Assembly: GCF_001413925.1 (NCBI RefSeq)
Contig: NZ_LBMJ01000001.1
Location: 124,001 to 188,000 of the forward strand
Direction of reading: 5' to 3'
DNA: 64,000 nucleotides
From: Nonlabens sp. YIK11
Lineage (GTDB): Bacteria > Bacteroidota > Bacteroidia > Flavobacteriales > Flavobacteriaceae
Under the pieces are notes generated by a model. That model did not search any database and was not told the origin of the DNA. It saw nothing but the letters and a program-made list of their open reading frames with translations. The translations under genes and the position numbers were made by a program. Shown piece by piece: positions 2,691 to 59,200 of this stretch; position 1 is the stretch's first letter, and the number at the start of each line of letters is the position of its first letter.

Positions 2691-2712
2691 GTTCGCTTTC
2701 GCGAAAGCGAAC
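2691..2712. repeat. palindrome GCTTTCGCGAAAGC, intergenic copy (family reference entry)
   Basis: This copy is extended to a 22-base perfect palindrome, lying between the convergent leuB and gapN genes. The exact 14-base core occurs 18 times in the window, starting at 2695, 5779, 7741, 13373, 15927, 20645, 21006, 24292, 26129, 28071, 28624, 32159, 34280, 40008, 45931, 51384, 56879 and 59184. Close variants with one or two changes lie near 7091, 8970, 36992, 37199 and 63197. The centre TTCGCGAA is constant, while the outer arms vary (often TTC...GAA). A given 14-mer would be expected about 0.0002 times by chance in 64 kb. Function is unknown. Confidence 0.95.
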
Positions 2713-2748
2713 TATTATTCAGTCTAAGGTATCATGATTCGTGAATCC

Positions 2749-4335
2749 CTATAAAATATAATCCGTACTCACAAAATTAGAACTTCTGGATTGCAGCAGT
2801 TCCTGTAGAATCGCATTGTTAGCCTCGTTATCCTTTGAAGCTACAAAAGTTCTAATGGAGAACGAGCGTAATGCATCGTGAACACTCAAGGTAGCCACCG
2901 CACTGTCCTTTCTACCAGTAAACGGATACACATCTGGACCACGCTGGCAGGAACTATTTAGATTCACTCGGCAAACTAGGTTCACTAATGTATCAATCAA
3001 TGGCGCTAACGTCTTGATGTCCTGACCAAATAAACTGACTTGTTGCCCATAGTTGGAAGCTGCCATATCATCCAACGGCTCGTCAATATCCTTGAATGAA
3101 ACAACTGGAATCACTGGCCCAAATTGCTCTTCTTGAAAAACGCGCATGTCCTTAGTTACTGGATATAGCACTGCAGGGAAAATGTAGTTCTCGGTGGTTT
3201 GTCCACCTTTTTCATTAATGATTTTGGCTCCTTTGTCTGTCGCATCATCAATCAATTCTTGTATGTAGGCTGGCTTGTCTGGTTCTGGCAAAGGAGTTAA
3301 TTTGACGCCACTTTCCCATGGATTCCCAAACTTCAAGGCATCTACTTTAGCCGCAAACCTTTTGTTGAATTCCTCAACAATATCTTCATGAACATAAAGA
3401 ATCTTGAGTGCGGTACAACGTTGACCATTAAAGGATGTAGCACCTGCGATACATTCCTCAATAGCAAGATCTAAGTTGGCATCCTTTAAAACAATAGCAG
3501 GATTTTTGGCTTCCAACCCTAATACGAGTCTAAGTCGGTTACTTTTAGGATGTTGGTTTTGTAGTGCATTGGCGCTTTTGCTGTTACCAATCAATGCCAG
3601 CACATCCACTTTTCCTGATTGCATGATGGGCGATGCCACTACTCTACCACGGCCGTAAATGATGTTGACCACGCCAGCTGGAAAACTGGATCTAAAGGCT
3701 TCCAGTAAAGGTGATATAAGTAACACACCATGTTTGGCAGGCTTAAAAATGGCAGTGTTTCCCATAATCAAAGCAGGAATCAACAACGCAAACGTTTCAT
3801 TTAATGGGTAATTGTAAGGCCCTAAGCACAAAACAACGCCTAGTGGTCCACGTCTTATGTGAGCATTAACACCATCGTGCTTTTGAAACTTGGCACTGTC
3901 TCGATCCATTTGCTTGTAGTCTTCAATGGTATCATATATGTAATCTACGGTACGATCAAATTCCTTTTCAGAATCAGGAAGGTTTTTACCTATTTCCCAC
4001 ATGAGCAGTTTTACAACCTCATCGCGCTTTGTTTTCATTTGTGCCACAAACTTTTCCATGCAGTTGATGCGATCCACTACTTTCATGGTAGGCCACAAAC
4101 CTTTCCCTTTGTCATATGCCACAACAGCAGCATCAAGTGCGTCCAGCGCTTCCTTTTCTCCCAAGGTAGGAATCGTACCTAATAACGTAGGTTGATAGTT
4201 ATCTGTAGACGAGATGGTAGAATACACCTCAGAAACTTCGCCTTTCCATTCTATAAGTTGACCACCTACCAAATAACTGTTTTGGTGTAGCTGTGACGTG
4301 ATTTGAAATTGTTGTGGTATTGTTGTTTGGCTCAT
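2749..4335 (-). CDS. gapN: NADP-dependent glyceraldehyde-3-phosphate dehydrogenase-like aldehyde dehydrogenase
   Basis: ALDH-superfamily enzyme of 528 residues resembling non-phosphorylating glyceraldehyde-3-phosphate dehydrogenase, which oxidises glyceraldehyde-3-phosphate to 3-phosphoglycerate and yields NADPH. The catalytic Cys is in [10 protein letters not shown] (about residue 307). The general-base Glu is in VLGLEAKNP (about residue 275), and the cofactor motif is GPYNYPLNE near 170. The C-terminal INxxCQRGPD-like stretch ([15 protein letters not shown]) is typical of the GapN branch rather than of general aldehyde dehydrogenases. It lies 64 bases downstream of ilvA on the same strand, so it may be read through from the ilv operon, although a functional link to that pathway is not obvious. 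The exact substrate is inferred. Confidence 0.8.
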
Positions 4336-4399
4336 TGGTTAGGTTTTAAATTTTGAAGATAACACCTCATTATTCATACAGTTTTACGCTGATGTTATA

Positions 4400-5662
4400 T
4401 CAAACCAAAAACTCGAATAAGGTTGGGTTATCATTAATGTAGTCTCCATAAAAATGGAGTGCTTTCATTCGCTCCAGGAGTGAATCAAAATCTTCGGTAG
4501 ATTTGAGTTCAATGCCTACTACGGCACTACCATTTATGCGATTGGTTTTTTTAGTGTACTCAAAATGAGTGATGTCATCATTGGGACCTAGTACTTTTTC
4601 AACAAATTCTCGTAAAGCACCAGCTCGTTGCGGGAATCGCACGATAAAATAATGTTTGAGTTGTGATTGCAGTAAAGCACGCTCTTTAATCTCTGCCGTT
4701 CTAGTGATATCATTATTGCTACCGCTTACCACGCAGACCACGTTCTTGCCTTTAATCTCGTCCCGCAATTGTTCCAATGCGGTGATGCTCATAGCGCCTG
4801 CAGGCTCTACTACAATAGCTTGTTGATTGTATAGATCTAAAATCGTCTGACAAATAGCACCTTCTGGAACGCTGATAACACGTTCCAGGTTTCTTTGACA
4901 AATTTCAAAGTTGCGTTCACCAACTCTTTTAACAGCTGCACCATCCACAAAGCTTTCTATGTTATCCAGTGTAGTGTTTTGTCTATTGAAAATTGAAGTA
5001 CCCATAGAAGGTGCTCCTGTAGGTTCTACACCTATGATTTTTGTAGCTGGTGAAAGCTCTTTAAATACCGCAGAAACACCAGCTGATAAACCGCCACCAC
5101 CTATAGGCATGATCAGATAATCAATATCCACTGCGGCCTGCTCCATAATTTCAAGTCCTACGGTCGCTTGACCTTCAATCACCTTTTCATCATCAAAAGG
5201 ATGGATAAAACATTTGCCTTGCTTCTCATTTTCTGCGACTGCAGCGGCATAGGCATCATCAAATGTATCACCGTGCAGGATCACATCGACAAACCTACCG
5301 CCATGCATCTTTACCTGATCAATTTTTTGAACTGGTGTAGGCGACGGCATGTAGATCGTTCCATGAATTTGCAATACTTTGCAAGACATGGCCACGCCTT
5401 GCGCATGGTTTCCAGCACTTGCACAGACAATCCCATTAGGACACTGGTCTTCCCTTAAGGTAGAAATCTTGTTGTACGCACCTCTTATTTTATAGGAACG
5501 TACCGTTTGCAGATCTTCTCTCTTAAAGTACACCTGGCAACCATACTTGTTGGAATACAATTCATTTAATTGTAGTGGCGTCAAGGAAGCCACGTCCTGT
5601 AAACGGTTTGCGGCAGCCTTGATGTCCTCCATTTTTGGATAATACACCTGCGTTTCAATCAT
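4400..5662 (-). CDS. ilvA: threonine dehydratase (biosynthetic)
   Basis: PLP-dependent deamination of threonine to 2-oxobutanoate, the committed step to isoleucine. The PLP lysine is in RSYKIRGAY (Lys58) and the phosphate-binding glycine loop is IMPIGGGGLSAG near residue 190. The last 85 or so residues form a single ACT-like regulatory domain (HYFIVRFPQRAGALREFVE onward), as in the 420-residue short form; E. coli IlvA has a double regulatory domain of about 510 residues. The start codon lies one base past the ilvC stop, so the two are tightly coupled. Last ilv gene of the operon. Confidence 0.95.
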   Translation of the reverse strand: MIETQVYYPKMEDIKAAANRLQDVASLTPLQLNELYSNKYGCQVYFKREDLQTVRSYKIRGAYNKISTLREDQCPNGIVCASAGNHAQGVAMSCKVLQIHGTIYMPSPTPVQKIDQVKMHGGRFVDVILHGDTFDDAYAAAVAENEKQGKCFIHPFDDEKVIEGQATVGLEIMEQAAVDIDYLIMPIGGGGLSAGVSAVFKELSPATKIIGVEPTGAPSMGTSIFNRQNTTLDNIESFVDGAAVKRVGERNFEICQRNLERVISVPEGAICQTILDLYNQQAIVVEPAGAMSITALEQLRDEIKGKNVVCVVSGSNNDITRTAEIKERALLQSQLKHYFIVRFPQRAGALREFVEKVLGPNDDITHFEYTKKTNRINGSAVVGIELKSTEDFDSLLERMKALHFYGDYINDNPTLFEFLV

Positions 5663-5663
5663 C

Positions 5664-7127
5664 TTAGATGGATTTCATGGCGGTCATGGAGTCGCGCAAC
5701 TTTGCGCCTACGCTTTCAATAGGATGGTTTCTAATGGCTTTGTTTATGGCTATGAGTTTATGATTGTCGATGCGTTCCGCTTTCGCGAAAGCGTTACCTA
5801 TAACAGCTTTATCCAGTCCATTGACATAATCAGACAATAAAGGTTTTGCAGCATGGTCAAACAAGTAGCAGCCATATTCTGCCGTGTCAGAAATGATACG
5901 GTTCATCTCAAACAGCTTCTTTCTAGCGACTGTGTTTGCGATCAATGGCAACTCGTGCAAAGATTCATAGTAAGCGCTTTCCTCAACGATCCCAGAGGCA
6001 ACCATCGTCTCAAACGCAAGTTCTACACCAGCCTTGATAAAGGCTACCATAGCAACACCGTTGTCAAAATATTCCTGCTCCTTAATATCGCCAGTAGCGG
6101 TGGATTTCTCAAATGCGGTGTTTTCAGTTTCGGCGCGCCATTTCAAGAGGTTCTTATCGTCATTTGCCCAGTCTTCCATCATGGTTTGTGAAAAATGACC
6201 CGACATGATATCGTCTTGATGCTTAACAAATAGAGGTCTCATGATGTCTTTCAATTCTTCAGAAAGCTCATAGGCCTTAATCTTTGAAACATTATCCAGC
6301 CTATCCATCATGTTGGTAATACCACCATGTTTGAGCGCCTCTGTAATGCGTTCCCAGCCGTACTGGATCAAATTTGACGCATAGCCTTCTGGCGTTCCCT
6401 GTGCGACCATTTTATCGTACAATAAAATAGAGGCCGTTTGCAACACACCACATAAAATGGTTTGCTCGCCCATCAGGTCACTCTTAACTTCTGCCACAAA
6501 AGAAGATTCCAATACGCCAGCTTTATGACCACCAGTGGCAACTGCATAAGCTTTGGCTTGATCCCAACCTTTGTTTTCTGGATCATTTTCTGGATGTACA
6601 GCAATCAAGGTAGGAACCCCAAAACCTCTTTTATATTCTTCTCTAACCTCAGATCCTGGACATTTAGGTGCTACCATGATCACGGTAATATCTTCCCTGA
6701 TTTTTTGGCCTTCTTCCACGATGTTGAAACCGTGCGAGTAGGAAAGCGTGGCTCCTTTTTTCATGTGCGGCATTACCGCTTCTACCACAGCACTGTGCTG
6801 CTTGTCTGGCGTTAGATTGAGTACGAGGTCTGATTGTGGGATCAACTCTTCATAGGTCCCAACAGTAAAACCATTTTCTGTAGCGTTTTTATAGGATTGT
6901 CTTTGTTGTTCTATAGCTTTTTTTCTAAGTGCGTAAGAAATATCAAGACCAGAATCACGCATGTTCAAACCTTGATTCAATCCTTGAGCACCGCAACCTA
7001 CGATAGTTATTTTTTTTCCTTTAAGGGCATCGACACCATTTACAAATTCTGCCTGCTCCATGAAGCGGCATTTGGAGAGTTGTTCCAGTTTTTGCGAAAG
7101 CGATAAGGTGTTAAAGTAATTTGACAT
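5664..7127 (-). CDS. ilvC: ketol-acid reductoisomerase, long (class II) form
   Basis: NADPH- and Mg-dependent isomeroreduction of acetolactate or acetohydroxybutyrate in valine, leucine and isoleucine synthesis. At 487 residues it is the class II form with a duplicated knotted domain, like the E. coli enzyme, rather than the 330-residue class I form. The nucleotide-binding loop [17 protein letters not shown] follows a short N-terminal extension. A copy of the genome palindrome is embedded in the C-terminal domain at 5779-5792, where it encodes AFAKA in [11 protein letters not shown] degenerate copy near 7091 encodes LSQK close to the N-terminus. The stop is one base from the ilvA start, and the start is 10 bases from the ilvN stop. 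Confidence 0.96.
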
Positions 7128-7137
7128 TGTTTGGTTT

Positions 7138-7668: not shown

Positions 7669-7736
7669 ACAATTAATGTTTTCAAGGCGTGACGAGACGA
7701 CCTTACTGACTCTCTTTTACTCGTGCATTTTGATGG

Positions 7737-7758
7737 GTTCGCTTTCGCGAAAGCGAAA
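7737..7758. repeat. palindrome copy in the ilvB-ilvN gap
   Basis: Exact core at 7741-7754 with GTTC and GAAA flanks, in the 143-base space between two subunit genes of one enzyme. In RNA it can form a 9-bp stem inside the ilv transcript. Confidence 0.95.
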
Positions 7759-13306: not shown

Positions 13307-13370
13307 ATTTCCCGCACAGTCTACCTTCCTTTATATTTATTAATCAAACGTTAGAGAACTTATAGTGAGT

Positions 13371-13387
13371 TCGCTTTCGCGAAAGCG
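13371..13387. repeat. palindrome copy in the metK 5' leader
   Basis: Exact core at 13373-13386, ending about 11 bases before the metK ATG. As RNA it would form a stable hairpin next to the ribosome-binding region, between the riboswitch and the start codon. Confidence 0.95.
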
Positions 13388-13397
13388 TAATACTTAT

Positions 13398-15412: not shown

Positions 15413-16258
15413 TTAAAAGTGCTGTGTGGTTTCATTCAATACTATTTTTTTGCCCTGCAATTGCTTTTCAGCAGACGGAAGGATTTCCATATTGTCCCAA
15501 ATTCCTGTAGCAAGTGTAGCGGCATATTCCATAGGTAGCTCATTTTTTTGCATCTGTTGCATGGCCGTTTGATAATCATAAGAAAGCTGAACATGCTCAA
15601 ATTCAAAGCCATTGCTGTCGTCAATGATCATTGCCCAGGTCTGCGCAGAGCCATCATTTGCCGGCATACCTATCACTCCAGCGTTGAGCCATAACTTTTC
15701 CTGGTGATCATCTGCAAATGGCAAGCCACAATGACCCGCAATGATAACATCTGCTGTCAACCCATCAAAGCTTGTCTGTTTTTGTGTCCAGTCTGTGGAC
15801 TTGAAAACGAATTGGGATACGTGATCATAACTTCCATGAACCAACGCTATCTGTTTGCCCGAATAGGAAAATGTAATGTGGTCTGGCAAGGATTTAAAAT
15901 AGTGTTTTGAGCTGGTGTGAAGATTCGCTTTCGCGAAAGCGAACCATATCTCACTAAATCCATCGCATCTAGAACCTGTGGTAAAATCGCAACCGCAATC
16001 TTCCTGATCGTCGCGCAGTTGGATCTCTACATTACCTAAAATGCTATGAGCGCCCCATTTTTGAAATTGCTCCAAGGTTTCCTGTGGCTGCCCGCAGTAA
16101 CCTATGATGTCGCCGGTACAGATACAGTTTTCTGCCGTGATACCTTGACTTTGCGCCAGTTCCATCAAACTTTCCAGCGCTTGTAAATTGCTATACACGC
16201 CACCGAATAGTAGCATCTTGCCGGTCTTTTGACCTAAATCTATGATCTTCTTATCCAT
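15413..16258 (-). CDS. calcineurin-like metallophosphoesterase with altered first motif
   Basis: 281 residues. Motifs are CTGDIIGYC (GD motif), ILGNVE (GNH/GNVE motif), LVHGSYD and IAGHCGLPF, in the usual order. The first motif, normally DxHGN, is instead GGVYSNLQAL, so the Asp and His metal ligands are replaced by Gly and Tyr. A cysteine cluster (DDQEDCGCDF...RCDGF) follows the GNVE motif. I recall related proteins in other phyla with FGGxYSNLQAL and CGCxF, so this appears to be a family trait rather than a local mutation. A palindrome copy at 15927-15940 encodes FAFAKA in the middle. It overlaps the symporter gene by 19 bases, so the two are translationally coupled. The real substrate, perhaps a phosphodiester, is unknown. 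Confidence 0.75.
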   Translation of the reverse strand: MDKKIIDLGQKTGKMLLFGGVYSNLQALESLMELAQSQGITAENCICTGDIIGYCGQPQETLEQFQKWGAHSILGNVEIQLRDDQEDCGCDFTTGSRCDGFSEIWFAFAKANLHTSSKHYFKSLPDHITFSYSGKQIALVHGSYDHVSQFVFKSTDWTQKQTSFDGLTADVIIAGHCGLPFADDHQEKLWLNAGVIGMPANDGSAQTWAMIIDDSNGFEFEHVQLSYDYQTAMQQMQKNELPMEYAATLATGIWDNMEILPSAEKQLQGKKIVLNETTQHF

Positions 16259-19254: not shown

Positions 19255-19296
19255 GTTCGCTTTCGCGCCATGCCTGACGGCAGGCAGGAAAGCGAA
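19255..19296. repeat. palindrome copy split by a second palindromic element
   Basis: The left part GTTCGCTTTCGCG (19255-19267) and right part GAAAGCGAA (19288-19296) belong to the common palindrome. Between them sits about 20 bases containing GCCTG-ACGG-CAGGC, a second inverted repeat. A similar composite lies at 52623-52660. It is in the gap between the SusC and SusD genes. Confidence 0.85.
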
Positions 19297-19302
19297 AAAG
19301 TT

Positions 19303-22300
19303 TTAAAAATTGATGCCAGCTTTCAAACCGATGCTTCTTGTTGATGCATAGGACATGTCCTCGACACCATTGACGAAGCCTTGTCCTTGCACGGCCAGCT
19401 GCTCTGGATCAAAATGCGGAATCTCACTAAAGGCAAACAAGTTTCTACCTATCAATGAAATACGCAAGTCTGCACCATCGCCGAAGATGCCGAAAGCACC
19501 TTCCTTCAATTCAAAATTGTAGCCTATAGAGAACTGACGCAATTTCAAATAACTGGCATCGTACACATTGTTCTCTTCATGGTTACGGTCATAAAACTGA
19601 CGGTAATAACTCTCTGCAGTGACCGCTGTGGTGTTTTGAACATACACTGGATTCTGCGCCGTTCCTGTATTGACTACGCCATCGGCAACAATTCCAGCTT
19701 CTGGCCTAAACGAGGTGTCGTTCAACTGGCCGCCAACAGCACCTAGGGCTAGCGTTCGTGAAACTAAAATCCCACCTTGTCTCCAGTCCAACAAGAACGA
19801 TGCATCAAAGTTTTTGTATTGGAATGAATTGGTCAACCCTACAGTGAAATCTGCATTGTAGTTACCTAATTTTTTAAGTTCTGGATCTGCGATAAAACGA
19901 CCTGCTGGAGTCAAAATAAACTCGCCGACTTCATTGCGCGTGTAACCGGTTCCATATAAATCGCCCACGCGACCGCCTTCTTCTACTTGATGAAAAACGG
20001 TCTGGTCGGCATTGTCATAGACTCTGGAAAAGCCCAAAGTCAAACGACCATCTTCCTGTGGCAGGCTCTCAACAATGGCTCTACTGCTGGCAAAATTCAC
20101 GGTGGAACTCCACTGGAAATTGGCATTTTGAACAGGAATGGCGTTCAAAATAATTTCGACCCCTTGATTTCTAACCGAACCACCATTGACTACCTGCTGG
20201 CTAAATCCTGATGAGATGGCAATAGGCAAGGAAAGAATCTGGTCATCTGTCACGGCATTGTAATAGGTGAAATCAAGGTTCAATCGCTGTTTAAGCAAAC
20301 GCACATCAAAACCTAACTCGATGCTAGAGGTCGTCTCTGGCTTCAAATTGGCATTTGGGATAAAATCCTGGTTGGTAAACGTAGGCTGTGAGTTTACAGG
20401 CGTTTGCGACAGGAAAGTTCCTTGAGTCTGGTACGGATTGGTATCGTTACCAACCTCTGCATAACTCGCGCGTATTTTGGCAAAATCAATGACTCTAGGG
20501 AGTTCAACTACGTTGCTCAATATAAAACTGGTCGATATGGACGGATAAAAGAACGAAGTATTATCTGCCGTGAATGGGGTTGCGAGAGCGCTGGACCAGT
20601 CGTTACGGGCTGTGATGTCTAGATAGAGGAAATTTTTGTAGCCTGCTTTCGCGAAAGCGTACAAACTATTAATCCTTTTCTCTGAAGTAAAGCCAAAGGT
20701 TTCAATCGGGCTCGCTGCATTGTTCAAGGAGAAAATTCCTGGTTGCGCAAGGCTAGTGGTCTGTACTTGGGTGGTTTGTGCCGTCTGGTTCAAACGATTC
20801 CCACCAACACTGGCATCAAAACTAATGTCTCCAAATTGCTTTTTATAATTGAGCAGGAAATCTGTGTTGATCTCACGGTAGAAAACATCATGCTCTGCAT
20901 AGGCTCCATTTCTAAACCTGTTGGAAGAATAGTTGCGCAGGAAACGTCGCTTCTCATTGCTGTAATCCATACCAGATCGTATGGTTGCGGTTAGCTCTGG
21001 AGTTAGCTTTCGCGAAAGCGATATGTTTCCAAAAAGCCTGTCACGACCAAAGCTGTTGCGGTTTTCTTTAAGTATGAAATAGGGATTGTCAAAAAACGTA
21101 TAGTTGAACGAGTACTGCTGCACGCCTTCCAATCCAGGCTGCCAGTAGTCACGCAAACTGTCAATGTTTAAAGAACGTGGTCCCCAAGCGACCAGTGAGT
21201 AGTTGACATTCTCACTACCATAACCGTTGGACGGTCTGTTGTCTGATGCACTATTCACATAGTTGATGCTAGCGTTGATTCTTGTACGGTCGCTAGGCCT
21301 AAAATTAAGTTTTGCAGCAACGGTTTGACGGTCCAGATTGACACCAGGAATGATGCTCTCGCTGCGCAGGTCTGTAAAGCTCAATCGATAGTCTCCTTTT
21401 TCAAAACCATTACTTACCGATATATTGTTGATGGCCGTGTAACCGGTCTCATAGAAATCCTTCAAATTATCTGGATGGCTCACAAAAGGTGTAGGCGTGA
21501 TGTCCAGACCACTGTATAAAGCGGTATCACCACCGCGAACTACCGTTCCATCTGGCAAAGTCACTGGACTATCAAATTGTGGGATCAACGTACCTTGATC
21601 CAGTCGTGGTCCCCAAGAATAGGAGATGTTATCATTGATACCACCACCTAAACCATCCACGTATTCAAACTGACCGCTGTTTCCCTGACCAAATTCATTC
21701 TGAAATTCTGGGAGTTTAAAAGCACTATCCACAAAGAAGCTGGTATTATATGAAACACCCAATCCTCTTTTTTTGCCGCCGCTTTTAGTTTCTATAATGA
21801 TGGCTCCATTGGCAGCTCTTGTGCCGTAAAGTGCTGCGGCTGCAGGTCCTTTAAGTACAGATACACTGGCGATGTCATCCTGGTTGATCTCACCTGCTCC
21901 ATTCCCAAAATCTACTTCTTGAAAACCAGCTGCGGCTTCGTTTGTAAAATTGAAAACCGAGTTGTTATTGACTGGCGTTCCATCCACGATAAATAACGGA
22001 TTGTTGTTTGAGAAACTCGCCTCGCCACGTATGGTTATTTTAGACGAAGAACCAACGCCTGTCGCGCCAGGTGTTACGGTAATACCAGCCACCTTGCCTT
22101 GAAGGTTATCAACCAGATTGACCGACTTTACTTCCTGAATATCTTCTGTATCCAAGGTTTGTACGGCATAGCCCAGTTCTCGTTCTTCACGTTTGATACC
22201 TAAAGCTGTAATCACAACCTCATCCAGCGCATCGCCTTCTTGTAGAGTGATGTTCAAAACAGTAGCATTGTTAACTGGAACCGTCTGGCTTTGGTAGCCT

Positions 22301-24287: not shown

Positions 24288-24309
24288 TTTCGCTTTCGCG
24301 AAAGCGAAA
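24288..24309. repeat. palindrome copy between arsS and arsM
   Basis: A 22-base perfect palindrome with TTTC and GAAA flanks, filling a third of the arsS-arsM spacer. Confidence 0.95.
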
Positions 24310-26127: not shown

Positions 26128-26145
26128 CGCTTTCGCGAAAGCGAA
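26128..26145. repeat. palindrome copy in the divergent promoter region 26093-26277
   Basis: Exact core at 26129-26142, about 35 bases upstream of the AhpD-like gene and 130 bases upstream of the small membrane protein gene. Confidence 0.95.
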
Positions 26146-30314: not shown

Positions 30315-30330
30315 GGTTGTCCTATTACCT

Positions 30331-32211
30331 CTATCGATCCAGATCAATGACCAGGCTGGTTTTACCGGCGACTTCCAGTTTACCAGAAAGATTCAGTTCC
30401 TTGTTAGTGATGATATCCGTTCCAGCTTGAGTATTATCTAGACCTTCAGCAAAACGGTTCATATCTAAAGAAACCGCTTCGGGATTATTGTTGATGATCA
30501 CCATCACACGGCTTTTGTCATTATGTCTAAAATACACGTAGCAATTTTGCTCGGGAACGTATTGTAGGAACTTTCCTGTGTGCAGGACTGATTTATTCTT
30601 GCGGTAGTTTAATAGCTTTTTGGTAAAAGCTTGATATTCGTTTTGCTCGGCTGTTGGGTTTGTAAAGGCATTTTGTTCATCACCTTTCCAGCCACCAGGA
30701 AAATCACGGCGTATATCACCATCGCCCAACTTAGACTTATCGCCCATCATACCTATCTCATCTCCATAATAGATTTGTGGAGTACCGCGTGTAGTCAATA
30801 TTAAGGTTAATGCAAGCTTATAGTTTGCCACATTATTGTTGTAAACACCAGAGCCACTAAACCTGTTGGTATCGTGGTTTGCCATAAATACCAGCAAGTT
30901 ATCTGTGTCTGCGTACAAGAAATCATTGACAAAATTCTCATACATGCGCACCATTCCTTTGTCCCAACCTTGCTCTTCTTCTTTAAAGGCTTCCATGATC
31001 GCATCATGTAAAGTAAAGTCCATCACACTGGGCAGCTCTGTATTGTAGTCTTGTATGGCGGCAACTGGAGAATCCTTTTGCCAATAGGAAATTTGCGCCT
31101 GATCATGCAACCATGTTTCTCCCACAATATTGATATTGGGATATTCCTTCATTATAGCTTTAGTCCAGTCCGCAATACCTTGCTTCTCATTGTAAGCATA
31201 GGTATCTACACGCAACCCGTCCAATCCAGCATACTCCAACCACCAGATGGTGTTTTGGATCAAGTAGTTCAATACCAATGGCTCTTCCTGATTCAGGTCT
31301 GGCATCGTACTTACAAACCAACCCTTTTCTGCATACCGCATATCATATTCACTAGCATTGGGATCCATTTGAACCGACTGTCGATAAGAAGAGTTTGCAT
31401 AACCATCGACTGGGAAATCACGATCGCTGTCTTTATAGTCATCAAATTGATGGATCCATGATTTCATGGGTAGATCCTGCATCATCCAGTGTGTAGCGCC
31501 CCAATGATTGGGAACCACATCCATGATCAATTTCATCTCACGCGCATGTAGTTCATCGGCAAGTTTGCGATACAATTCGTTCGTTCCATAACGTGGATCG
31601 ACGTTATACAAATCGCTTTGCGCATAGGTATGATAAGAAGTTCTAGCGTCGTTATCTTCCAGCAATGGCGTGCTCCAGATAGCGGTAGCACCCAATTCAT
31701 CAATATAATCCAGATGATCTATAATTCCTTGAATATCGCCACCATGACGGCCGTTTCTATCAGATCTGTTCAACTTATCTGCCATTGAGTCTACTGAATC
31801 ATTGCTGGGATCACCATTAGCAAATCGATCTGGCATGACCAGGTAAATCACATCGCTGGAGTCAAATCCTTCACGTTCTTTTGATCCAGACTCGCGATTT
31901 TCCAACCTAAAGGTCTTGGAATTGGCCTTCTTTTTCCCGACTGATATTTTATAATCACCAGCAGATTTACCAGCGGTTTCCACCGTTATAAAAAGGTAAT
32001 TGGGATTTTCGGGTTTGGTGATATTAACAATAGGTAAATCAGAGGTGACTTCGCCTTGATTGGCAATATCATTTCCGTAGAGCATGACCTCTACTTGCGA
32101 GTACTCCATGCCGGTCCACCAATTGGGTGGTTCCATACGTTGGATTTGTGCGGTACTCGCTTTCGCGAAAGCGAAAACAATCAATCCCAATAACCAATGT
32201 CTCATCATCAT
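30331..32211 (-). CDS. GH13 neopullulanase/cyclomaltodextrinase-like enzyme (SusA-like)
   Basis: 626 residues. The signal peptide MMMRHWLLGLIVFAFAKA has its C-region encoded by a palindrome copy (32159). An N-terminal beta domain (PPNWWTGMEYSQVEVMLYG) is typical of cyclomaltodextrinase/neopullulanase proteins. The barrel has DVVPNHWGATHW, the nucleophile in GLRVDTYAYNE, the acid in IVGETWLHD and the third Asp in FMANHDTNRF. No lipobox is seen, so it is probably soluble in the periplasm. Gaps to its neighbours are 6 and 16 bases. Confidence 0.92.
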   Translation of the reverse strand: MMMRHWLLGLIVFAFAKASTAQIQRMEPPNWWTGMEYSQVEVMLYGNDIANQGEVTSDLPIVNITKPENPNYLFITVETAGKSAGDYKISVGKKKANSKTFRLENRESGSKEREGFDSSDVIYLVMPDRFANGDPSNDSVDSMADKLNRSDRNGRHGGDIQGIIDHLDYIDELGATAIWSTPLLEDNDARTSYHTYAQSDLYNVDPRYGTNELYRKLADELHAREMKLIMDVVPNHWGATHWMMQDLPMKSWIHQFDDYKDSDRDFPVDGYANSSYRQSVQMDPNASEYDMRYAEKGWFVSTMPDLNQEEPLVLNYLIQNTIWWLEYAGLDGLRVDTYAYNEKQGIADWTKAIMKEYPNINIVGETWLHDQAQISYWQKDSPVAAIQDYNTELPSVMDFTLHDAIMEAFKEEEQGWDKGMVRMYENFVNDFLYADTDNLLVFMANHDTNRFSGSGVYNNNVANYKLALTLILTTRGTPQIYYGDEIGMMGDKSKLGDGDIRRDFPGGWKGDEQNAFTNPTAEQNEYQAFTKKLLNYRKNKSVLHTGKFLQYVPEQNCYVYFRHNDKSRVMVIINNNPEAVSLDMNRFAEGLDNTQAGTDIITNKELNLSGKLEVAGKTSLVIDLDR

Positions 32212-32217: not shown

Positions 32218-34338
<2,121 letters not shown>

Positions 34339-36648: not shown

Positions 36649-37310
36649 TACTTCGTTTTATTCAATAACTGTTGTTGATAATCTTGAGGCATATCCAGGA
36701 AGCTCTCAAAAACTTCATCTGCCTCACTTAAATTTTGTGCTTCTCCCAAACCAATACTGATCATTCCAGCATTATTGGCGGCCTGGATTCCTGCGATACT
36801 GTCCTCAAAAACGATGGCGTTTGCTGCTGGCATGTTGAGCAGTTCACAGGCGTTAAGAAACACTTCTGGATCTGGTTTTGCCTTGCTCACATCGGTACCA
36901 TCTACGATGGCGTCAAACAAATCATGAATCCCAAGTTTTTTGAGTATAGGTCTGGCATTTTTACTGGCACTACCTAGGGCGATGGGTTGTTCGCTTTCGC
37001 GTAAGCGTAATAAAAATTCATGCACGCCAGGTAGGATATCATCCTGGGTAAGTGTTTCTACCATCTCGAGATATTCCTCATTTTTCTGAATGAGTTTTCG
37101 GTCAAAGGTTTCTTGATCAATGGATCTGTTTCCCCATTCGAGGATCTTTTCTAGGGAACGAACTCTGGATACTCCTTTGAGCTGTTCGTTTTCCTCTTCC
37201 GCGAAAGCGATACCTAATTCTGCCGCCAGTTTTTGCCAAGCAATAAAATGGAATTTTGCGGTATCGACTACGACTCCATCCAGATCAAATATGAATGCTT
37301 TTTTACTCAT
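36648..37310 (-). CDS. pgmB: beta-phosphoglucomutase
   Basis: HAD-superfamily enzyme of 220 residues that converts beta-glucose 1-phosphate to glucose 6-phosphate. Motifs are FDLDGVVVDT (DxD nucleophile and acid/base), the helical cap with KGVSRVRSLEKIL, GSASKNARPILKK and FEDSIAGIQAANNAG. Two degenerate palindrome copies are embedded: one at about 36992 encodes LRLRES and one at about 37199 encodes IAFAE. Overlaps both neighbours by one base (TAATG at each junction), so transporter, mutase and phosphorylase are translationally coupled. Confidence 0.94.
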   Translation of the reverse strand: MSKKAFIFDLDGVVVDTAKFHFIAWQKLAAELGIAFAEEENEQLKGVSRVRSLEKILEWGNRSIDQETFDRKLIQKNEEYLEMVETLTQDDILPGVHEFLLRLRESEQPIALGSASKNARPILKKLGIHDLFDAIVDGTDVSKAKPDPEVFLNACELLNMPAANAIVFEDSIAGIQAANNAGMISIGLGEAQNLSEADEVFESFLDMPQDYQQQLLNKTK

Positions 37311-40003: not shown

Positions 40004-40022
40004 GTTCGCTTTCGCGAAAGCT
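40004..40022. repeat. palindrome copy upstream of the LacI-family gene
   Basis: Exact core at 40008-40021, about 25 bases before the regulator start codon and 35 bases from the operator at 40056. Confidence 0.95.
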
Positions 40023-45891: not shown

Positions 45892-48651
45892 ATGAAATTT
45901 AGAATGTTACTCACTGCTCTATTGGTATTCGCTTTCGCGAAAGCGCAATCACCAGTAACAACAGTACCCGCGACACCAACCCAAACAGACGCTGTAAAGC
46001 TAGTGTTCAATGCGGTAGGAACTGATCTTGAAAACTCCACTACAGACTTATATGCTTACACTGGGCTCACCATTAATGGGGAAAGGTTCCAGAATATTAT
46101 AGTGGACGATTTTTTTGAAAATAATGGCGCACCTAAATTCACAAAGACCGGTGCAAACACCTACGAACTTGATATTACCCCAAGTATTAATGAGTTTTAT
46201 AATGTCCAGCAAGGTGATGTCGTAACAGAGATTTTCTTGGTGGTAAGAAATTCCAATGGCTCGCGCCAGACAAGGCCAGATATCTTTTTGCCTGTTTTTG
46301 AACCAGGTTTGAATGCCTTGATTACCTCACCAGAGAGAAATACTATTTTTGAGGTCAATCAATCTACCACCATAACCGCAGAGAGTTCTCAATCAGCAGA
46401 CTTGACATTGAGTGTGAACGGTAACCAGATTGCTGCGGTAACTGGAACATCCATTTCTAGCTCCTATACTTTTCCTGCTACTGGAAATTACACTTTTGAA
46501 TTCGCTGCCACGACTGCAAGTGAAACAGCGACCAATTCTATTAGTGTATTTGTTCCTAATGAAACGGTAAATAAACCAAGACCTACTGGTCTAAAAAATG
46601 GAGTTAATGAAAATGCAGATGGAAGCGTGACGTTTTTACTTGCAGCACCACTTAAAAGTGATGCGGTTCTTATAGGTAGTTTTACCAATTGGGATTTGAA
46701 TACGGACTTTCAAATGAATAAGGATGGTGACTATTTTTGGATTACAGTGCCTGCGAGCAACTTTACCGCAAACACTTCTTTTCAGTACCAATATCTCATC
46801 GATTATGACATTAGAATAGCAGACCCTTTTAGCACGTTGATCTTGGATCCATTTAATGATTCCTTTATTAGCGATAGTAATTATCCCAACCTTCCAGAAT
46901 ATCCCACTGGATTAACGGTAAATGACGTGACTTTGTACACTTATCAAGCCACACCCTACAACTGGACAGTCACTGATTTTCAAAGACCTGATAATGAAAA
47001 CTTAGTGATTTATGAATTACTGGTGCGTGACTTTTCAGAAGATGATAGTTATCAATCCATCATTGACAACATTGACTATATCGTGGACTTAGGGGTAAAT
47101 GCTGTAGAGTTCATGCCTCTTAACGAGTTTGAAGGCAATGATAGTTGGGGTTATAATCCTAAGTTTCATGGTGCACTAGACAAAGCGTACGGACCGCCAG
47201 CAAAATTGAAGGAATTGATTGATCTTTTACATGCTAATGGTATTGCCGCTATTGTAGATGTGGTTTACAACCATTCTTTTGGACAAAGTCCATTGGTACA
47301 AATGTGGCCAGATGGCGGTGGCTTTAATGCTGGACCAACCAACCCATATCTTAATCAAAATGCAAGACACCCATTCAATGTAGGTACAGACTTCAACCAT
47401 GAAAGTCCATGGACCAAACAATACGTTAAGCAAACCATGCAATATTTTCTAGATGAGTATAAGTTTGACGGATTTAGGTTTGATCTTTCTAAGGGTTTTA
47501 CGCAAACGAATACCGGCAATGATGTTGGCGCTTGGGGACGTCGTGATGATTCCAGAATCGCTATTTTAAATGAGTATAAGTCTTTCCTGCTAGCAAACAA
47601 TGATGATGATATCTACCTCATTCTAGAACACTTATCTGATAACGAAGAAGAGAAGATATTAGCAGATTCCGGATTTATGTTATGGGGGAAAATGAGTGAA
47701 GAGTACAAGCAGAACTCATTAGGTTACTCCAGTAATTCAAGCTTACAAAGGGCTTATTTCACATCTCGTGGATTCAATGAGCAGCACCTAGTTTCTTATG
47801 CAGAGAGTCATGATGAAGAACGCATCATGTACGAAACCTTAAGAAACGGTAACAATGCCTTCTCGAACTATCAAGTTCGCAGTTTGCCTGTAGCATTAGA
47901 CAGACAAGAAGCCATTGCTGCCATTCAGTACAGTATTCCAGGACCTAAAATGCTATGGCAATTTGGAGAATTAGGCTATGATATTTCTATTAATGCTAGT
48001 GCTTCAAACCCAACTTGTACCACTTGTCGTACCGATAGAAAACCTGTTCCTTTTACTAATGGCTATGCATCTGATGCACAGCGATTGGATTTGTATGAGA
48101 AGACCAGCGAAATGATCAAGTTAAAAGTGAAATATCCAGAGACCTTCAACAATACGAACAACTTCTTGGAAGTGAGTGGAGGCCTGGTGAAGCGCATTGA
48201 GCTAAGAGGTCCTGAATTTGATGCTATCGTGCTAGCAAACTTTGACGTAACGCCAAAGCAGATCGCTCCTAAGTATACTAAAACGGGAACTTGGTACGAT
48301 TATTTTGAAGGAACCAGCTCTAACGTGACCAATCAAAATGCGACCGTAAGTATTCCTGCTGGTGGTTATAAAATCTTTACCAGCAAGGAGATCAATACCA
48401 CGGCAAGCAGTGGTGATACAACAGGAACTGTATCTAACATACAACTGTATCCTAATCCTACTCAAGACACATTTGAATTCAATGTGCCTGTTAAGAAAGT
48501 GATAGTAAGATCTATCACGGGACAGACCGTAAAAATCTTTGATGAGATGCAGGCTCGTTACGATGTTTCAAATCTGGTTACTGGAATGTATATTATTGAT
48601 GCGTATGACCTAGAGAATAACCGTTCGTCGATAAAATTGATTAAAAACTAA
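45892..48651 (+). CDS. secreted GH13 alpha-amylase with T9SS sorting domain
   Basis: 919 residues. Signal peptide MKFRMLLTALLVFAFAKAQ has its end encoded by a palindrome copy (45931). Beta-sandwich domains occupy about 20-225, then a CBM48-like domain (FLLAAPLKSDAVLIGSFTNW). The catalytic barrel has DVVYNHSFGQSP, the nucleophile in GFRFDLSKGFT, the acid in LILEHLSDNEE and the third Asp in YAESHDEERIMYE. The last 75 or so residues (NIQLYPNPTQDTFEF...GMYIIDAYD...SIKLIKN) are a type A T9SS C-terminal domain, so the enzyme is exported across the outer membrane and probably attached to the surface. It starts polymer breakdown for the sus system. Confidence 0.93.
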   Translation: MKFRMLLTALLVFAFAKAQSPVTTVPATPTQTDAVKLVFNAVGTDLENSTTDLYAYTGLTINGERFQNIIVDDFFENNGAPKFTKTGANTYELDITPSINEFYNVQQGDVVTEIFLVVRNSNGSRQTRPDIFLPVFEPGLNALITSPERNTIFEVNQSTTITAESSQSADLTLSVNGNQIAAVTGTSISSSYTFPATGNYTFEFAATTASETATNSISVFVPNETVNKPRPTGLKNGVNENADGSVTFLLAAPLKSDAVLIGSFTNWDLNTDFQMNKDGDYFWITVPASNFTANTSFQYQYLIDYDIRIADPFSTLILDPFNDSFISDSNYPNLPEYPTGLTVNDVTLYTYQATPYNWTVTDFQRPDNENLVIYELLVRDFSEDDSYQSIIDNIDYIVDLGVNAVEFMPLNEFEGNDSWGYNPKFHGALDKAYGPPAKLKELIDLLHANGIAAIVDVVYNHSFGQSPLVQMWPDGGGFNAGPTNPYLNQNARHPFNVGTDFNHESPWTKQYVKQTMQYFLDEYKFDGFRFDLSKGFTQTNTGNDVGAWGRRDDSRIAILNEYKSFLLANNDDDIYLILEHLSDNEEEKILADSGFMLWGKMSEEYKQNSLGYSSNSSLQRAYFTSRGFNEQHLVSYAESHDEERIMYETLRNGNNAFSNYQVRSLPVALDRQEAIAAIQYSIPGPKMLWQFGELGYDISINASASNPTCTTCRTDRKPVPFTNGYASDAQRLDLYEKTSEMIKLKVKYPETFNNTNNFLEVSGGLVKRIELRGPEFDAIVLANFDVTPKQIAPKYTKTGTWYDYFEGTSSNVTNQNATVSIPAGGYKIFTSKEINTTASSGDTTGTVSNIQLYPNPTQDTFEFNVPVKKVIVRSITGQTVKIFDEMQARYDVSNLVTGMYIIDAYDLENNRSSIKLIKN

Positions 48652-51264: not shown

Positions 51265-51567
51265 CGTCTTCGCTTTTTTATGAAGTTAAGACTTACCCTA
51301 TTCGCCATTCTTAGAACGGTCTTAAACTTGTCACGACGTACGTTAAAAATGATGTTTAGATGGACGATGCTTGATGATAGTTCGCTTTCGCGAAAGCGAT
51401 GCAAATTAAAAGCTGCTCAATTACATTAAGATATTCGGCTTTGATATAGAACTTGAGTGAAATTAGAATGAAAAAAACGTCGAAAAGTAAATGCGCGTTG
51501 CCCTTGTTTTTAACTCCAGATTAACGCAGGAATGTATTACGTTTGATGGATAATAAGAAGGCTTAAA
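51265..51567. other. intergenic region with palindrome copy and -7 box
   Basis: Holds a palindrome copy (core 51384-51397, flanked TTC/GAT) and a TACGTTTG at 51538-51545, an exact TAnnTTTG match 22 bases before the ATG of the next gene. No TTTG at the -33 distance. No gene longer than about 18 codons. Confidence 0.5.
51380..51399. repeat. palindrome copy at 51384-51397
   Basis: Exact core between the divergently oriented oxidoreductase gene and the unknown secreted protein gene. Confidence 0.95.
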
Positions 51568-52622: not shown

Positions 52623-52660
52623 TTTCGCTTTCCTGTCTGCCGACAGGCAGGCGAGTAAGA
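52623..52660. repeat. second nested composite palindrome
   Basis: TTTCGCTTTC (52623-52632) is the left half of the common palindrome. It is followed by CTGTC-TGCC-GACAG and AGGCAGG (about 52633-52651), then a degraded right half GCGAGTAAG. The inner element resembles the one at 19268-19287. Confidence 0.75.
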
Positions 52661-56100: not shown

Positions 56101-57508
56101 AGGTATTGTTGGTAGCAACAATTTTTACCTCGTGTTTTGAAGCCAGCTCAAGCAAGACCTGGTTACAGCGTTGCTCATCTTCTTGATCGTGGCGCATGAT
56201 TTCAATATAGAGATCTTCACCAAAATGTTCCTTCCACCACAGCAATGCCTCTTCGGCCTGCTTTTCTCCTACATTAAGAATTTTGGATGGTACTTCTCCA
56301 TATAGGTTACCCGTCAGGACGATAAGATCATCTTTATACTGTTCCACCAATTTTTTATCAATACGTGGCACGTAGTAAAATCCTTCTGTATAGGCCTTAC
56401 TCGCCATTTTGGCGAGATTGTGATACCCGTTTTTATTTTTGGCAAGCATGACGATCTGGTAGCCGTTGTCCTTGACCGACTTATCGTTCATGTCCTCACA
56501 CACCTGAAACTCACAACCTATAATAGGCTTGATGGGTTTAAGGTGTGTATCTGCATCACCAGCAAGACTGGCATTATGGGCCTTAACCGCACGTACAAAA
56601 TGAAAGGCGCCCATCATGTTTGCATGGTCTGTCATGGCCACGGCAGGCATATCGTTTGCCGCCGCTGCCTGTACCAGATCCTGAACACTTGCCGTAGATT
56701 GTAGGATAGAAAACTGACTGTGGTTGTGCAAATGAGCAAAAGGCGCACTGCTCAATTCATCCAGATTCTCCTTGATCTCTGCTTTTGAGATTTCCGGCTC
56801 ATCGTTGGAAACCAGTCTAGCCGATGCCTCTTTAAGGTTGGTATGCGGGATACCTGCAGGTTGGATGGTGGTTGGGTTGCTTTCGCGAAAGCGAACCAAA
56901 TAATCTGCATCCTGCTTTAATTGTGCCACCGTGTATTGCTGCAGTCTTACCAGTTCAAAGAAACAGCGAGTAGTGGCCTCCACGTCTGCCGTGGCGTTGT
57001 GTGCCTCGCCAAAAGGTTCTTTAAAAAGAAACTCGTGAAGCTCTGTCAACGTGGGCAGCTTGAACTTACCGCCGCGTCCACCAGGAATCTGGCAAAGCTG
57101 CGCGGTATGCTCTGTACAGGTGTCCAGCACCGGGATTTCCTGCAGGTTGTTCTCCATTTGCGCACGGATGAACTCTGCACCGGTCACGTTAAGGTCAAAC
57201 TGTAGATTTTGTCCCACGACAAAGTTGGTCATCGCCAGCGCATCGTTGAATTTCTCGAGCACTTCCAGCAATGGTTTTCCTTCCTTTTGCGCTAGCGCGG
57301 TAGAGATACCGTGGATGCGCTCTGAATCGTAGGGAATATCATAACCATCGGGCTGGATCAGATAATCCTGATGGTCCACCATGTTGCCCATATCGTCATG
57401 CAACTGCCAGGCGATTTGCACCACTCGTGGCCAGTTGTCAACATCTGTATAAGGTGCATCCCAACGTTTAGGTAATCCAGTGGTTTCAGTATCAAATATT
57501 AAGTACAT
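53156..57508 (-). CDS. dnaE: DNA polymerase III alpha subunit with N-terminal exonuclease domain
   Basis: 1450 residues. Residues 1-200 form a DnaQ-like DEDDh exonuclease: DTETTGLP (D6, E8), VVGQNLQFDLN and HNATADVEATTR. Residues from about 265 are a PHP domain (FAHLHNHSQFSILQSTASV, MTDHANMMGAFHFVRA), followed by the polymerase core with VGPGRGSAAGSAVAY and PDIDIDFDDENRYKVMDYV. The tail has an OB-like domain near 1200-1330. A palindrome copy (56879) falls in the linker between exonuclease and PHP domains and encodes VRFRESN. The exonuclease fusion is common in this phylum's replicative polymerase. It is a stand-alone replication gene. Confidence 0.93.
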   Translation of the reverse strand: MYLIFDTETTGLPKRWDAPYTDVDNWPRVVQIAWQLHDDMGNMVDHQDYLIQPDGYDIPYDSERIHGISTALAQKEGKPLLEVLEKFNDALAMTNFVVGQNLQFDLNVTGAEFIRAQMENNLQEIPVLDTCTEHTAQLCQIPGGRGGKFKLPTLTELHEFLFKEPFGEAHNATADVEATTRCFFELVRLQQYTVAQLKQDADYLVRFRESNPTTIQPAGIPHTNLKEASARLVSNDEPEISKAEIKENLDELSSAPFAHLHNHSQFSILQSTASVQDLVQAAAANDMPAVAMTDHANMMGAFHFVRAVKAHNASLAGDADTHLKPIKPIIGCEFQVCEDMNDKSVKDNGYQIVMLAKNKNGYHNLAKMASKAYTEGFYYVPRIDKKLVEQYKDDLIVLTGNLYGEVPSKILNVGEKQAEEALLWWKEHFGEDLYIEIMRHDQEDEQRCNQVLLELASKHEVKIVATNNTYYIDKADANAHDILLCVKDNEKQATPIGRGRGYRYGLPNQEYYFKSSDEMKQLFKDLPDAILNVQEVIDKVEAYELARDVLLPAFQIPEEFVDPDDAINKTKNGENAYLRHLTYEGAKLRYGEDFSDEIRERLDFELEVIKNTGYPGYFLITWDFIKAAREMDVAVGPGRGSAAGSAVAYCLKITNVDPIHYDLLFERFLNPDRVSMPDIDIDFDDENRYKVMDYVIEKYGASQVAQIITYGTMAAKSSIRDCARALDLPLQDADRVAKLIPDFAKLKKIFALEDNEISGKFRGDDADMVRELRELAEGDDPVGEMLKQARILEGSVRNTGVHACGVIITPDDLTNFVPVATAKNSDLYVTQFDNEVVESAGLLKMDFLGLKTLSQIKDTVAIIKERHGISLDIESIPLDDDKTYELFQRGETTAIFQYESVGMQKYMRELKPTQFADLIAMNALYRPGPLEYIPEFIDRKHGRKEISYDLDAMEEYLKETYGITVYQEQVMLLSQKLANFSKGDADVLRKAMGKKQMATLQKMKPQFLDAGESNGHDRTILEKVWKDWEAFASYAFNKSHSTCYAWIAYQTAYLKANYPAEFMAATLSNNMNQIKDVTKFMDECRRMGLEVLGPDVNESNYKFTVNPKGAIRFGMGAVKGLGYNAVMTIIENRSEKPYISIFDMAKRIDLRAANKKSFEALALSGGFDGLGGDNRAQYFHEADNGQMFLEQVVKYAQKFQENENSAQVSLFGESSDVQIPEPQLPVCEDWGTMEKLKREKEVVGIYISGHPLDDYKKEIDFFCNSNLSVLTDLESLVNKELSFCGVISECRHLVSKANKPFGSFVLEDYNDSYEFRLFGEEYLKFRHFLVPNTFLYAKIKIQQGWMDKNTGKPRDPRIQFTHMQQLQDVMATSAKSLIIEFHVTELMEKRVELLKEVLEKHKGDHKLHFNLKDHEEKISLDMSSRLHKVNVNAELLSMLDEAEISYGVKG

Positions 57509-57692: not shown

Positions 57693-57722
57693 TCTAAATT
57701 TGTAGAGTAGTTCACTTAAATT

Positions 57723-58169: not shown

Positions 58170-58343
58170 AATATTAGTTTGTATGGTTTGTAATTCGTTA
58201 TACCTTAATATAACAACATAAGATCTTTAAAACACCCTGATTACCAATACTTTAATTTAATCTTACCATCAGCTTAACGTTAGAAGGCCTAATTACCTGA
58301 CTTTGTTAATTTAATTAACGAGCACGCTGCCGGTGTCATTTTG

Positions 58344-58393
58344 AAAAAAAAAATCCCAAGAGTAATTGGTCAAAACCAACACCTCTTAGGATT
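58344..58393 (-). terminator. terminator after the second DUF2383 gene
   Basis: AAATCC(C)AAGAG pairs with CTCTTAGGATTT around an inner hairpin (TTGGT/ACCAA); the minus strand ends in a run of about ten T residues. Confidence 0.82.
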
Positions 58394-58429
58394 TGATTAG
58401 CGCGTCTTTAAAAGACAACGCATAATTTG

Positions 58430-58876
58430 TTACCAAGTTTTCTCTAAGGACTTGACATTAGTCAAGGCACTCTGGATATTATCTCTGTGTTTTGTCAACA
58501 CACTTTTAGTAGATGGTGGCAATGTGCTGTCATTGATGATTTCATTGTACTCCTCAACGGCAGCCTTCTCTCCACGTATAGCTTCTTCAAGAATACTGTC
58601 TGCACTGTTTGCAGAGAATGTGGATTTAATATTCATCCATGCACGGTGCGCATCACCTGCTAGACTGGTTCCTTTATCAGGTTCCTGTCCAAAGCTCTTC
58701 AACTCGGCTTTCAATTCATGACCAAAGTTGTAACGCTCCTGTGCCTGCTTACCAAAGAAATCTTTCAACTGCGTGTTATCCACTTGCTCCTTTGCGGTTT
58801 TGTAACCAGCTTCTGCATCATAGTTCTTTTCCAATAATGCGTTTAATTTTTTTCCTACTTCATCTGTATAGCTCAT
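58430..58876 (-). CDS. PA2169/DUF2383 family four-helix protein (copy 2)
   Basis: 148 residues, paralogue of the preceding protein (both have KNYDAEAGYK, EEAIRGEKxAVEEYNEIIN and WMNIKSTFS). The two genes are tandem in the same orientation, each with its own terminator, so they are probably transcribed separately after a tandem duplication that has since diverged clearly. Confidence 0.88.
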   Translation of the reverse strand: MSYTDEVGKKLNALLEKNYDAEAGYKTAKEQVDNTQLKDFFGKQAQERYNFGHELKAELKSFGQEPDKGTSLAGDAHRAWMNIKSTFSANSADSILEEAIRGEKAAVEEYNEIINDSTLPPSTKSVLTKHRDNIQSALTNVKSLEKTW

Positions 58877-59181
58877 GATAGTTGTTTTAAGTGATTAATT
58901 ATGACCCTAATTTACTGCTATGTGGGTTGTTTCGTACGTCGTTTGGGATTGGTTTGGCTTAAGTTTAGGCCGCTATTAACGATTGTGTAAAGCAACTATT
59001 CAAATACGTTAAGATATTAACGATGTACGTTTGAGAGCGACATGATTATTCCTGTCTATAGAAACTGACACAAAAACGACTCAAAAAACACGGTTTTTCT
59101 GTTTCAACTTTTCATTCCTCATTTTTGTAAAAAGCATACCCGTCTTTAGAAGCCTTTTTGAGGTTGGAAGAAGTTGAAATG

Positions 59182-59200
59182 ACGCTTTCGCGAAAGCGAA
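59182..59200. repeat. palindrome copy upstream of nrdB
   Basis: Exact core at 59184-59197 in the long nrdB leader. Confidence 0.95.

What the first reader, a model, noticed from the sequence alone, without database searches (positions are those of the whole stretch)
2691..59200. Frame-neutral 14-base palindrome in 18 exact copies
GCTTTCGCGAAAGC is repeated 18 times, eight intergenic and ten within genes, plus several near-copies. In genes it appears as AFAKA (seven times), RFRES (twice) or SLSRK (once). None of the three frames contains a stop, and the palindrome reads the same on both strands. That makes it tolerable almost anywhere and suggests either spread by an unknown copying mechanism or selection for a DNA-binding or structural site, comparable to the HIP1 motif of cyanobacteria. 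The conserved centre is TTCGCGAA.
Basis: partly seen in the sequence, partly recalled or inferred. Interest (0 to 1): 0.8.

Follow-up and report, generated by a model that had tools for sequence, protein, structure and literature searches.

The report
Evenly spaced genome-wide palindrome in Nonlabens
A 14-16 base palindrome is repeated about 750 times along this marine bacterium's chromosome, kept almost mutation-free and spaced roughly one every four kilobases, which suggests a self-recognition or chromosome-organising signal that my searches did not find described.

Summary
Confirmed: 18 exact copies in the window (0.15 expected even allowing 2 mismatches), 752 in the 3.26 Mb genome. All 23 Nonlabens genomes and all 18 genomes of a second genus searched, and one further genome, carry hundreds; the other family genomes sampled have 0-19. 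The real site is larger: a 16-bp core, CGCTTTCGCGAAAGCG, with C-poor preferred flanks reaching 20-30 bp out, alike on both strands and inside or outside genes. Spacing is strikingly even (2 of 99 intervals below 1 kb; 23.5 expected). Between genomes 5% apart the core differs by 0.2%. In 18 dnaE genes the site occupies one or both of two columns; genes lacking it at a column differ by substitutions, without gaps. It is missing from a 29-kb second contig and scarce in a polysaccharide gene cluster. Some sites (11, against 147 exact, in 604 kb) carry a ~21-bp hairpin inside.

RAYT transposases and two DNA-methyltransferase families have no match in this genome, against the REP and partly the HIP1 reading. 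Best mechanism: uptake sequence of natural transformation kept by molecular drive (0.4); close rival: a chromosome-organising protein's site. No cognate protein was found.

The parts
2695..2708 (.). exact site, intergenic (convergent genes)
   Evidence: genes
5779..5792 (.). exact site in ORF 5664-7127(-), AFAKA
7741..7754 (.). exact site, intergenic
13373..13386 (.). exact site at the doubtful start of ORF 13365-14654(+), counted intergenic
15927..15940 (.). exact site in ORF 15413-16258(-), AFAKA
19259..19293 (.). long form: palindrome arms interrupted by a hairpin; same form in relative G397
20645..20658 (.). exact site in SusC/RagA gene 19303-22512(-), AFAKA
21006..21019 (.). exact site in the same SusC/RagA gene, SLSRK; no site in G409, ungapped alignment
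24292..24305 (.). exact site, intergenic
26129..26142 (.). exact site, intergenic; gapped out in G409
28071..28084 (.). exact site in ORF 27969-30347(-), RFRES
28624..28637 (.). exact site in the same ORF, AFAKA; region not aligned to G397
32159..32172 (.). exact site in ORF 30331-32211(-), AFAKA
34280..34293 (.). exact site in ORF 32218-34335(-), AFAKA
36993..37006 (.). one-mismatch site
40008..40021 (.). exact site, intergenic
45931..45944 (.). exact site near the start of the alpha-amylase-like, T9SS-tailed gene 45892-48651(+), AFAKA; one substitution in G397
51384..51397 (.). exact site, intergenic
52627..52659 (.). degenerate long form (hairpin kept, right arm mutated), judged by eye
56879..56892 (.). 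exact site in dnaE (53156-57508, -), RFRES; 14 of 18 Nonlabens dnaE genes examined share this column
59184..59197 (.). exact site, intergenic

Best explanation
SHOWN: a double-stranded-DNA site with a 16-bp palindromic core (CGCTTTCGCGAAAGCG) and symmetric, C-poor, T-tract-bearing flanks, held at about one per 4 kb in all chromosome regions sampled, nearly mutation-free, indifferent to gene orientation, present or absent at dnaE columns through substitutions without gaps, and poor or absent in the two stretches of likely accessory DNA examined. INFERRED: it is the self-recognition (uptake) sequence of natural transformation in this flavobacterial lineage. A dimeric surface DNA receptor binds the palindrome in either orientation; fragments carrying a site are imported (ComEC) and recombined, so alleles with a site replace alleles without one (molecular drive). 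One site per fragment is enough, so redundant neighbours decay and spacing becomes even.
For: 752 copies; even spacing against uniform, class-matched and one-per-feature nulls; core divergence 0.23% against 5.0%, gaps not counted, like Neisseria DUS, 97% identity in ~85% surroundings (PMC2397512, passages); core plus T-tracts about 10 bp apart, as the H. influenzae USS has AT tracts (PMC7811141, passages); 0 sites in 29,000 bases read of the 29,179-base C2 and 1 in a 20-kb polysaccharide stretch, as DUS are scarce in acquired DNA; at least one site in each of 18 dnaE genes, at two alternative columns; possible relics, more one-offs than exact copies, in G144, G329 and G042; ComEC domain in 17 of 17 motif-rich genomes; Riemerella columbina, placed in the same family by its authors, is naturally competent and prefers its own DNA, uptake motif undefined (PMC7965970, section 16).
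Confidence: 0.4

Rival explanations
1. Chromosome-organising site: an unknown dimeric DNA-binding protein occupies one site per ~4 kb and loops, bends or partitions the nucleoid; selection keeps one site per domain and lets redundant ones decay.
For: Near-exclusion below 1 kb; extended symmetric flanks with T-tracts about 10 bp apart, fitting a bent or wrapped complex; indifference to gene orientation; long forms, whose ~21-bp insert is two helical turns, keep the flanks and sit in gaps between exact sites; 20 stretches spread over C1 hold 1 to 7 sites each.
Against: No sequence-specific nucleoid protein with hundreds of 14-16-bp sites is known to me (recall). 391 of 397 family genomes have 0-19 copies, and possible relics in G144 suggest loss, so the function would be dispensable. 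No protein identified. Long forms and one-offs in gaps may simply be recently altered sites.
Confidence: 0.27
2. HIP1-like: a cognate DNA methyltransferase plus methyl-directed repair creates and protects the palindrome, as Elhai (2015) proposes for HIP1.
For: High copy number, coding and non-coding, palindromic; the model predicts density saturation (PMC4390886, section 18 part 1; section 8).
Against: This genome has no match to PF01555 or PF00145; 5 of 17 motif-rich genomes have no match to either, and a sixth (G418) only a PF01555 match below the cut-off. The core is longer than the 8-mer HIP1 and its flank preference reaches 20-30 bp. HIP1 one-offs favour the ends (abstract); here 11 of 17 are at position 5/10 and 4 at the ends. 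Other methyltransferase families were not searched.
Confidence: 0.13
3. Mobile or hairpin element: REP-like repeats spread by copying, the 14-mer being the collapsed form of the 35-bp hairpin.
For: Three 21-bp hairpin presence/absence differences between G000 and G397; 11 long forms in 604 kb; in G206, 4 of 4 hairpins of this type lie, by eye, in site remnants, one with intact arms.
Against: No RAYT (PF01797) in the own genome, G397, G410, G402 or G190. Sites at dnaE columns come and go without gaps. No long form in 19 stretches from other Nonlabens. In G190 three such hairpins lie outside sites. Flank letters differ between copies apart from the bias, and spacing is even.
Confidence: 0.07

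Closest known systems
Uptake sequences (Haemophilus USS, Neisseria DUS)
   Same: Hundreds of copies or more, strict core, conserved positions, scarce in acquired DNA, relatively even distribution, AT tracts beside the USS core.
HIP1 and alternate HIPs of cyanobacteria
   Same: Abundant palindrome in and between genes; palindromic extensions of the core.
   Different: Longer core, extended flanks, different one-off pattern, no PF01555/PF00145 match in this genome.
REP/BIME elements with RAYT transposases
   Same: Palindromic repeats; the long form is a bulged hairpin.
   Different: No RAYT in this genome, mostly in genes, comes and goes by substitution, evenly spaced.
Noc, SlmA or MatP sites (recalled, no call)
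   Same: Palindromic 13-16-bp sites of chromosome-wide proteins.
   Different: Those number tens and depend on position along the chromosome (recall); here ~750, and none of 20 stretches between 0.2 and 3.07 Mb of C1 lacks a site.

Membership tests
DNA uptake sequence | strong genome-wide over-representation of one motif | tested here: met
   752 copies, reversed control 0
DNA uptake sequence | conserved at orthologous positions above its surroundings | tested here: met
   0.23% of 882 core bases against 5.0% over 224,334 aligned bases, gaps not counted
DNA uptake sequence | scarce in recently acquired DNA | tested here: inconclusive
   0 in the 29-kb second contig, 1 in a 20-kb stretch of polysaccharide genes: agrees, but only two stretches and their recent arrival was not shown; prophage-like contigs do carry sites
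DNA uptake sequence | promotes uptake or transformation | not testable with these tools
   needs an experiment
DNA uptake sequence | cognate receptor encoded | not tested
   ComEC domain present but not specific; no receptor sought
HIP1-type | cognate DNA methyltransferase in the genome | tested here: inconclusive
   PF01555 and PF00145: no match in G000; other families not searched
HIP1-type | abundant palindrome in and between genes | tested here: met
   86 coding, 60 non-coding of 146
REP/RAYT | RAYT (Y1 transposase) in the genome | tested here: not met
   PF01797: 0 in G000
REP/RAYT | extragenic location | tested here: not met
   86 of 146 in genes

The most novel reading that the evidence does not exclude
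A sequence-encoded chromosome ruler: an unknown dimeric protein binds ~750 palindromes spaced by a one-per-4-kb rule, organising the nucleoid of Nonlabens and its kin in small units, a kind of site not known to me in bacteria.
Probability: 0.22. Interest if true: 0.92.

Novelty: new variant of a known kind. Interest (0 to 1): 0.72.

Why it matters
If it is an uptake sequence, it would be, as far as my searches show, the first defined in Bacteroidota and, as far as I recall, the first palindromic one, and would point to the DNA receptor of a competence system whose essential genes include four of unknown function in Riemerella anatipestifer (PMC8459023, abstract). If it is an architectural site, it would be a new principle of bacterial chromosome organisation. 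Either way the motif may mark the origin of transferred DNA: metal-efflux genes in motif-poor flavobacteria carry it.

Tried and rejected
Promoter or terminator role: disfavoured, since 86 of 146 sites are in coding sequence and the intergenic ones follow available space (tandem 37, divergent 13, convergent 7 of 57, against 32.8, 13.2 and 8.8 kb). RNA-level role: disfavoured, since the flank bias is alike on both strands and independent of sense. Extended pairing of the flanks: complementarity of opposite flank positions is about what independent halves would give (my arithmetic, not a call). Noc/SlmA/MatP-like position bias: not seen in 20 spread stretches. RAYT: no match. One origin or two: the dnaE trees need two changes of the label, with motif-poor G144 beside G190 and g206; one search holds a mis-picked frame (L011, very long branch), so one search was built without it, without G023 and G025 (long branches) and with fewer named rows.

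Literature: (14-mer and its nested cores): 199 papers hold one of the nested strings, 30 shown, ranked by number of terms, none with the 14-mer or 12-mer. Searches (2 papers; 7; 1; 12 shown of 25; 12 of 70; 12 of 57; 5) listed none that, by title and start of abstract, describes this motif or a defined uptake sequence in this family. The library holds open-licence papers only.
Full report
OBSERVATION. The window holds 18 exact GCTTTCGCGAAAGC (0.15 expected even at up to 2 mismatches) and all 18 of its TTCGCGAA lie in them. The whole genome (G000, 3,260,677 bases in 2 contigs, window = C1:124001-188000) has 752 copies and none of the reversed control; allowing one mismatch gives 838, so 86 one-offs.

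WHO HAS IT. The genus is Nonlabens: G394, of the same genus, shares its dnaE protein and the length of the contig carrying it (619,059) with a named Nonlabens MAG. All 23 Nonlabens genomes searched carry the motif (421 to 930 copies at up to one mismatch). Of 397 family genomes, 6 have hundreds (G000 752, G010 578, G242 664, G394 609 in Nonlabens; G190 408; G206 857), none of the rest over 19, and 317 have none. All 18 genomes of G206's genus that were searched have 369 to 905. In an order-wide draw of 395 (overlapping the family draw) genomes of other families had at most 2. Of 80 named dnaE loci, the 2 Nonlabens ones hold 5 and 6 copies and the other 78 none. In dnaE trees the motif-rich rows form Nonlabens and a second group of g206 with G190, where motif-poor G144 also falls; at least two changes are needed.

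THE SITE. In 111 sites with flanks from 464 kb, C precedes the core on 96% of strands, T fills -3 (72%) and -13 (61%), G peaks at -16 and -15 (46%, 41%), and C falls to 1-7% from -12 to -4, against 20.5% overall. In 60 intergenic sites the half-site reads roughly G R T T T n T n n T n A K T T C followed by the core. The bias is alike on both strands and in sense and antisense of genes, hence DNA-level. G206 shows nearly the same flanks, except A at -2; G190 shows them weakly. Conservation between genomes is confined to the core and about 5 bp either side, so the outer flanks are a compositional preference, not fixed letters.

SPACING. In 604 kb, 3 of 128 intervals are under 1 kb (29.7 expected, minimum 18 in 1000 shuffles) and CV is 0.49 (null 0.94, minimum 0.73). 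For the first 100 sites of C1, 2 of 99 intervals are under 1 kb (23.5 expected, minimum 12) and CV is 0.45 (null 0.98, minimum 0.70 in 5000). In 244 kb the result holds against nulls matched for coding/non-coding class and with one site per gene or gap. It is weaker in G206 (P 0.02) and not significant in G190 (P 0.11) in 160-kb samples. Sites are 41% intergenic where 11% of bases are, by a simple ORF caller of mine (60 and 86 of 146; one of 147 dropped at a segment end); 19 of the 86 genic ones lie in the first tenth of the ORF.

EVOLUTION. Against G397 (about 95% nucleotide identity), 59 of 64 own sites are exact, 4 differ, 1 is unaligned; in reverse 59 of 62, 2 and 1. The six differences are three single substitutions and three 21-bp hairpins present or absent. 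Core divergence is 0.23% of 882 aligned bases against 5.0% over 224,334, gapped bases left out. Against G409 (71-88% identity around sites), 12 of 18 window sites align with an exact core, one is substituted, one gapped out, and four lack a full alignment. In 18 Nonlabens dnaE genes (18 fetched rows, fewer than the 23 genomes), 14 carry the site at one column, 5 at another 250 codons on, one at both, none at neither; genes without it at a column have other residues and no gap. So sites come and go by substitution, with about one kept per gene-sized stretch; which state is older at each column was not worked out.

VARIANTS. Of 17 one-offs in 604 kb, 11 are at symmetric position 5/10 and 10 of these are the same transition. 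Long forms split the palindrome with a ~21-bp CCTGCCTG...CAGGCAGG hairpin: 11 in 604 kb, 10 intergenic, with the same C-poor flanks (4.8% C). Both kinds lie in gaps between exact sites (median 2255 and 2239 bp to the nearest exact site, against 1217 and 1080 for random places; P 0.0035 and 0.002). That may mean they still work, or only that they are recently altered sites. A loose hairpin pattern gave 109 matches in the same 604 kb, mostly unrelated; the script's arm test flagged 6, and by eye 16 of 17 hairpins of this type sit in intact (11) or degenerate (5) site arms. In G206 4 of 4 sit, by eye, in site remnants at a different junction; in G190 three do not. Why the site attracts this hairpin is unexplained.

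FOREIGN DNA. The second contig (29,000 of 29,179 bases read) has none. The sparsest sampled stretch, L106 (1 site in 20 kb), is largely a polysaccharide gene cluster (10 of its 17 ORFs scanned). In motif-poor genomes the few copies often cluster; in G078 all four copies of the cluster sit in metal-efflux genes (RND pump, outer-membrane factor, P-type ATPase), and in G337 at least one of five sits in a P-type ATPase gene (9 proteins scanned). The same 933-bp spacing recurs in G078, G087, G101, G160, G215 and G076: DNA that probably came from motif-rich hosts (inference). At up to one mismatch G144 has 9 exact and 20 one-off, G329 6 and 17, G042 6 and 19, which look like relics; others with copies do not show this (G076 16 and 10, G287 19 and 9, G051 17 and 7, G101 6 and 6, G337 8 and 7, G350 5 and 3, G078 4 and 1); nine genomes with no exact copy had 0 or 1. 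Some prophage-like viral contigs carry 2-3 sites (11 of 80 listed stretches had two or more sites or C-poor flanks).

PROTEINS. No RAYT (PF01797) in G000, G397, G410, G402 or G190 among the 9 motif-rich genomes; present in G409, G010, G394 and, weakly, G206. PF01555 over its cut-off is in 7 of 17 motif-rich and 4 of 20 motif-poor genomes, PF00145 in 8 of 17 and 12 of 20; G000, G405, G421, G422 and G431 have no match to either. The ComEC domain is in 17 of 17 motif-rich and 19 of 20 motif-poor genomes. The cognate protein remains unknown.

INTERPRETATION. Density, strict core with AT tracts, conservation, scarcity in the accessory DNA examined, substitutional turnover with saturation, and possible relics match uptake sequences best (comparisons from passages and section 7 of PMC2397512 and passages of PMC7811141), and the family contains naturally competent members with self-preference. 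Palindromy, the near-ban on close pairs and the tolerated hairpin are unlike known uptake sequences and keep a chromosome-organising protein as a serious rival. HIP1 is the nearest analogue in kind, but its methyltransferase basis is unsupported here.

Noticed in passing
19259-19293 and 52627-52659; 11 long forms in 604 kb sampled: A ~21-bp hairpin CCTGCCTG...CAGGCAGG is found, by eye, in intact or degenerate site arms in 16 of 17 cases in this genome's sample, and at another junction of the site in G206: site-specific hairpin insertion of unknown mechanism.
   Followed up: partly
L145 (G078), L148 (G337); same 933-bp pair in L146 (G215): Metal-efflux genes in motif-poor flavobacteria carry the motif at recurring positions, a possible tag of transfer from motif-rich hosts.
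   Followed up: partly
G144, G329, G042: More one-mismatch than exact copies: possible relics of a lost system.
   Followed up: partly
L189, L203, L220, L243 (IMG/VR stretches): Prophage-like contigs (terminase, integrase, head maturation protease, transposase) with 2-3 sites each at 3-6 kb spacing.
   Followed up: partly
53156-57508: DnaE with an N-terminal DnaQ-like (epsilon exonuclease) region in one 1450-aa protein; the site lies near residue 205, between the two regions.
   Followed up: no
86 genic sites in the 604-kb sample: 19 of 86 lie in the first tenth of the ORF, e.g. the AFAKA at 45931 near the start of an amylase-like protein.
   Followed up: no
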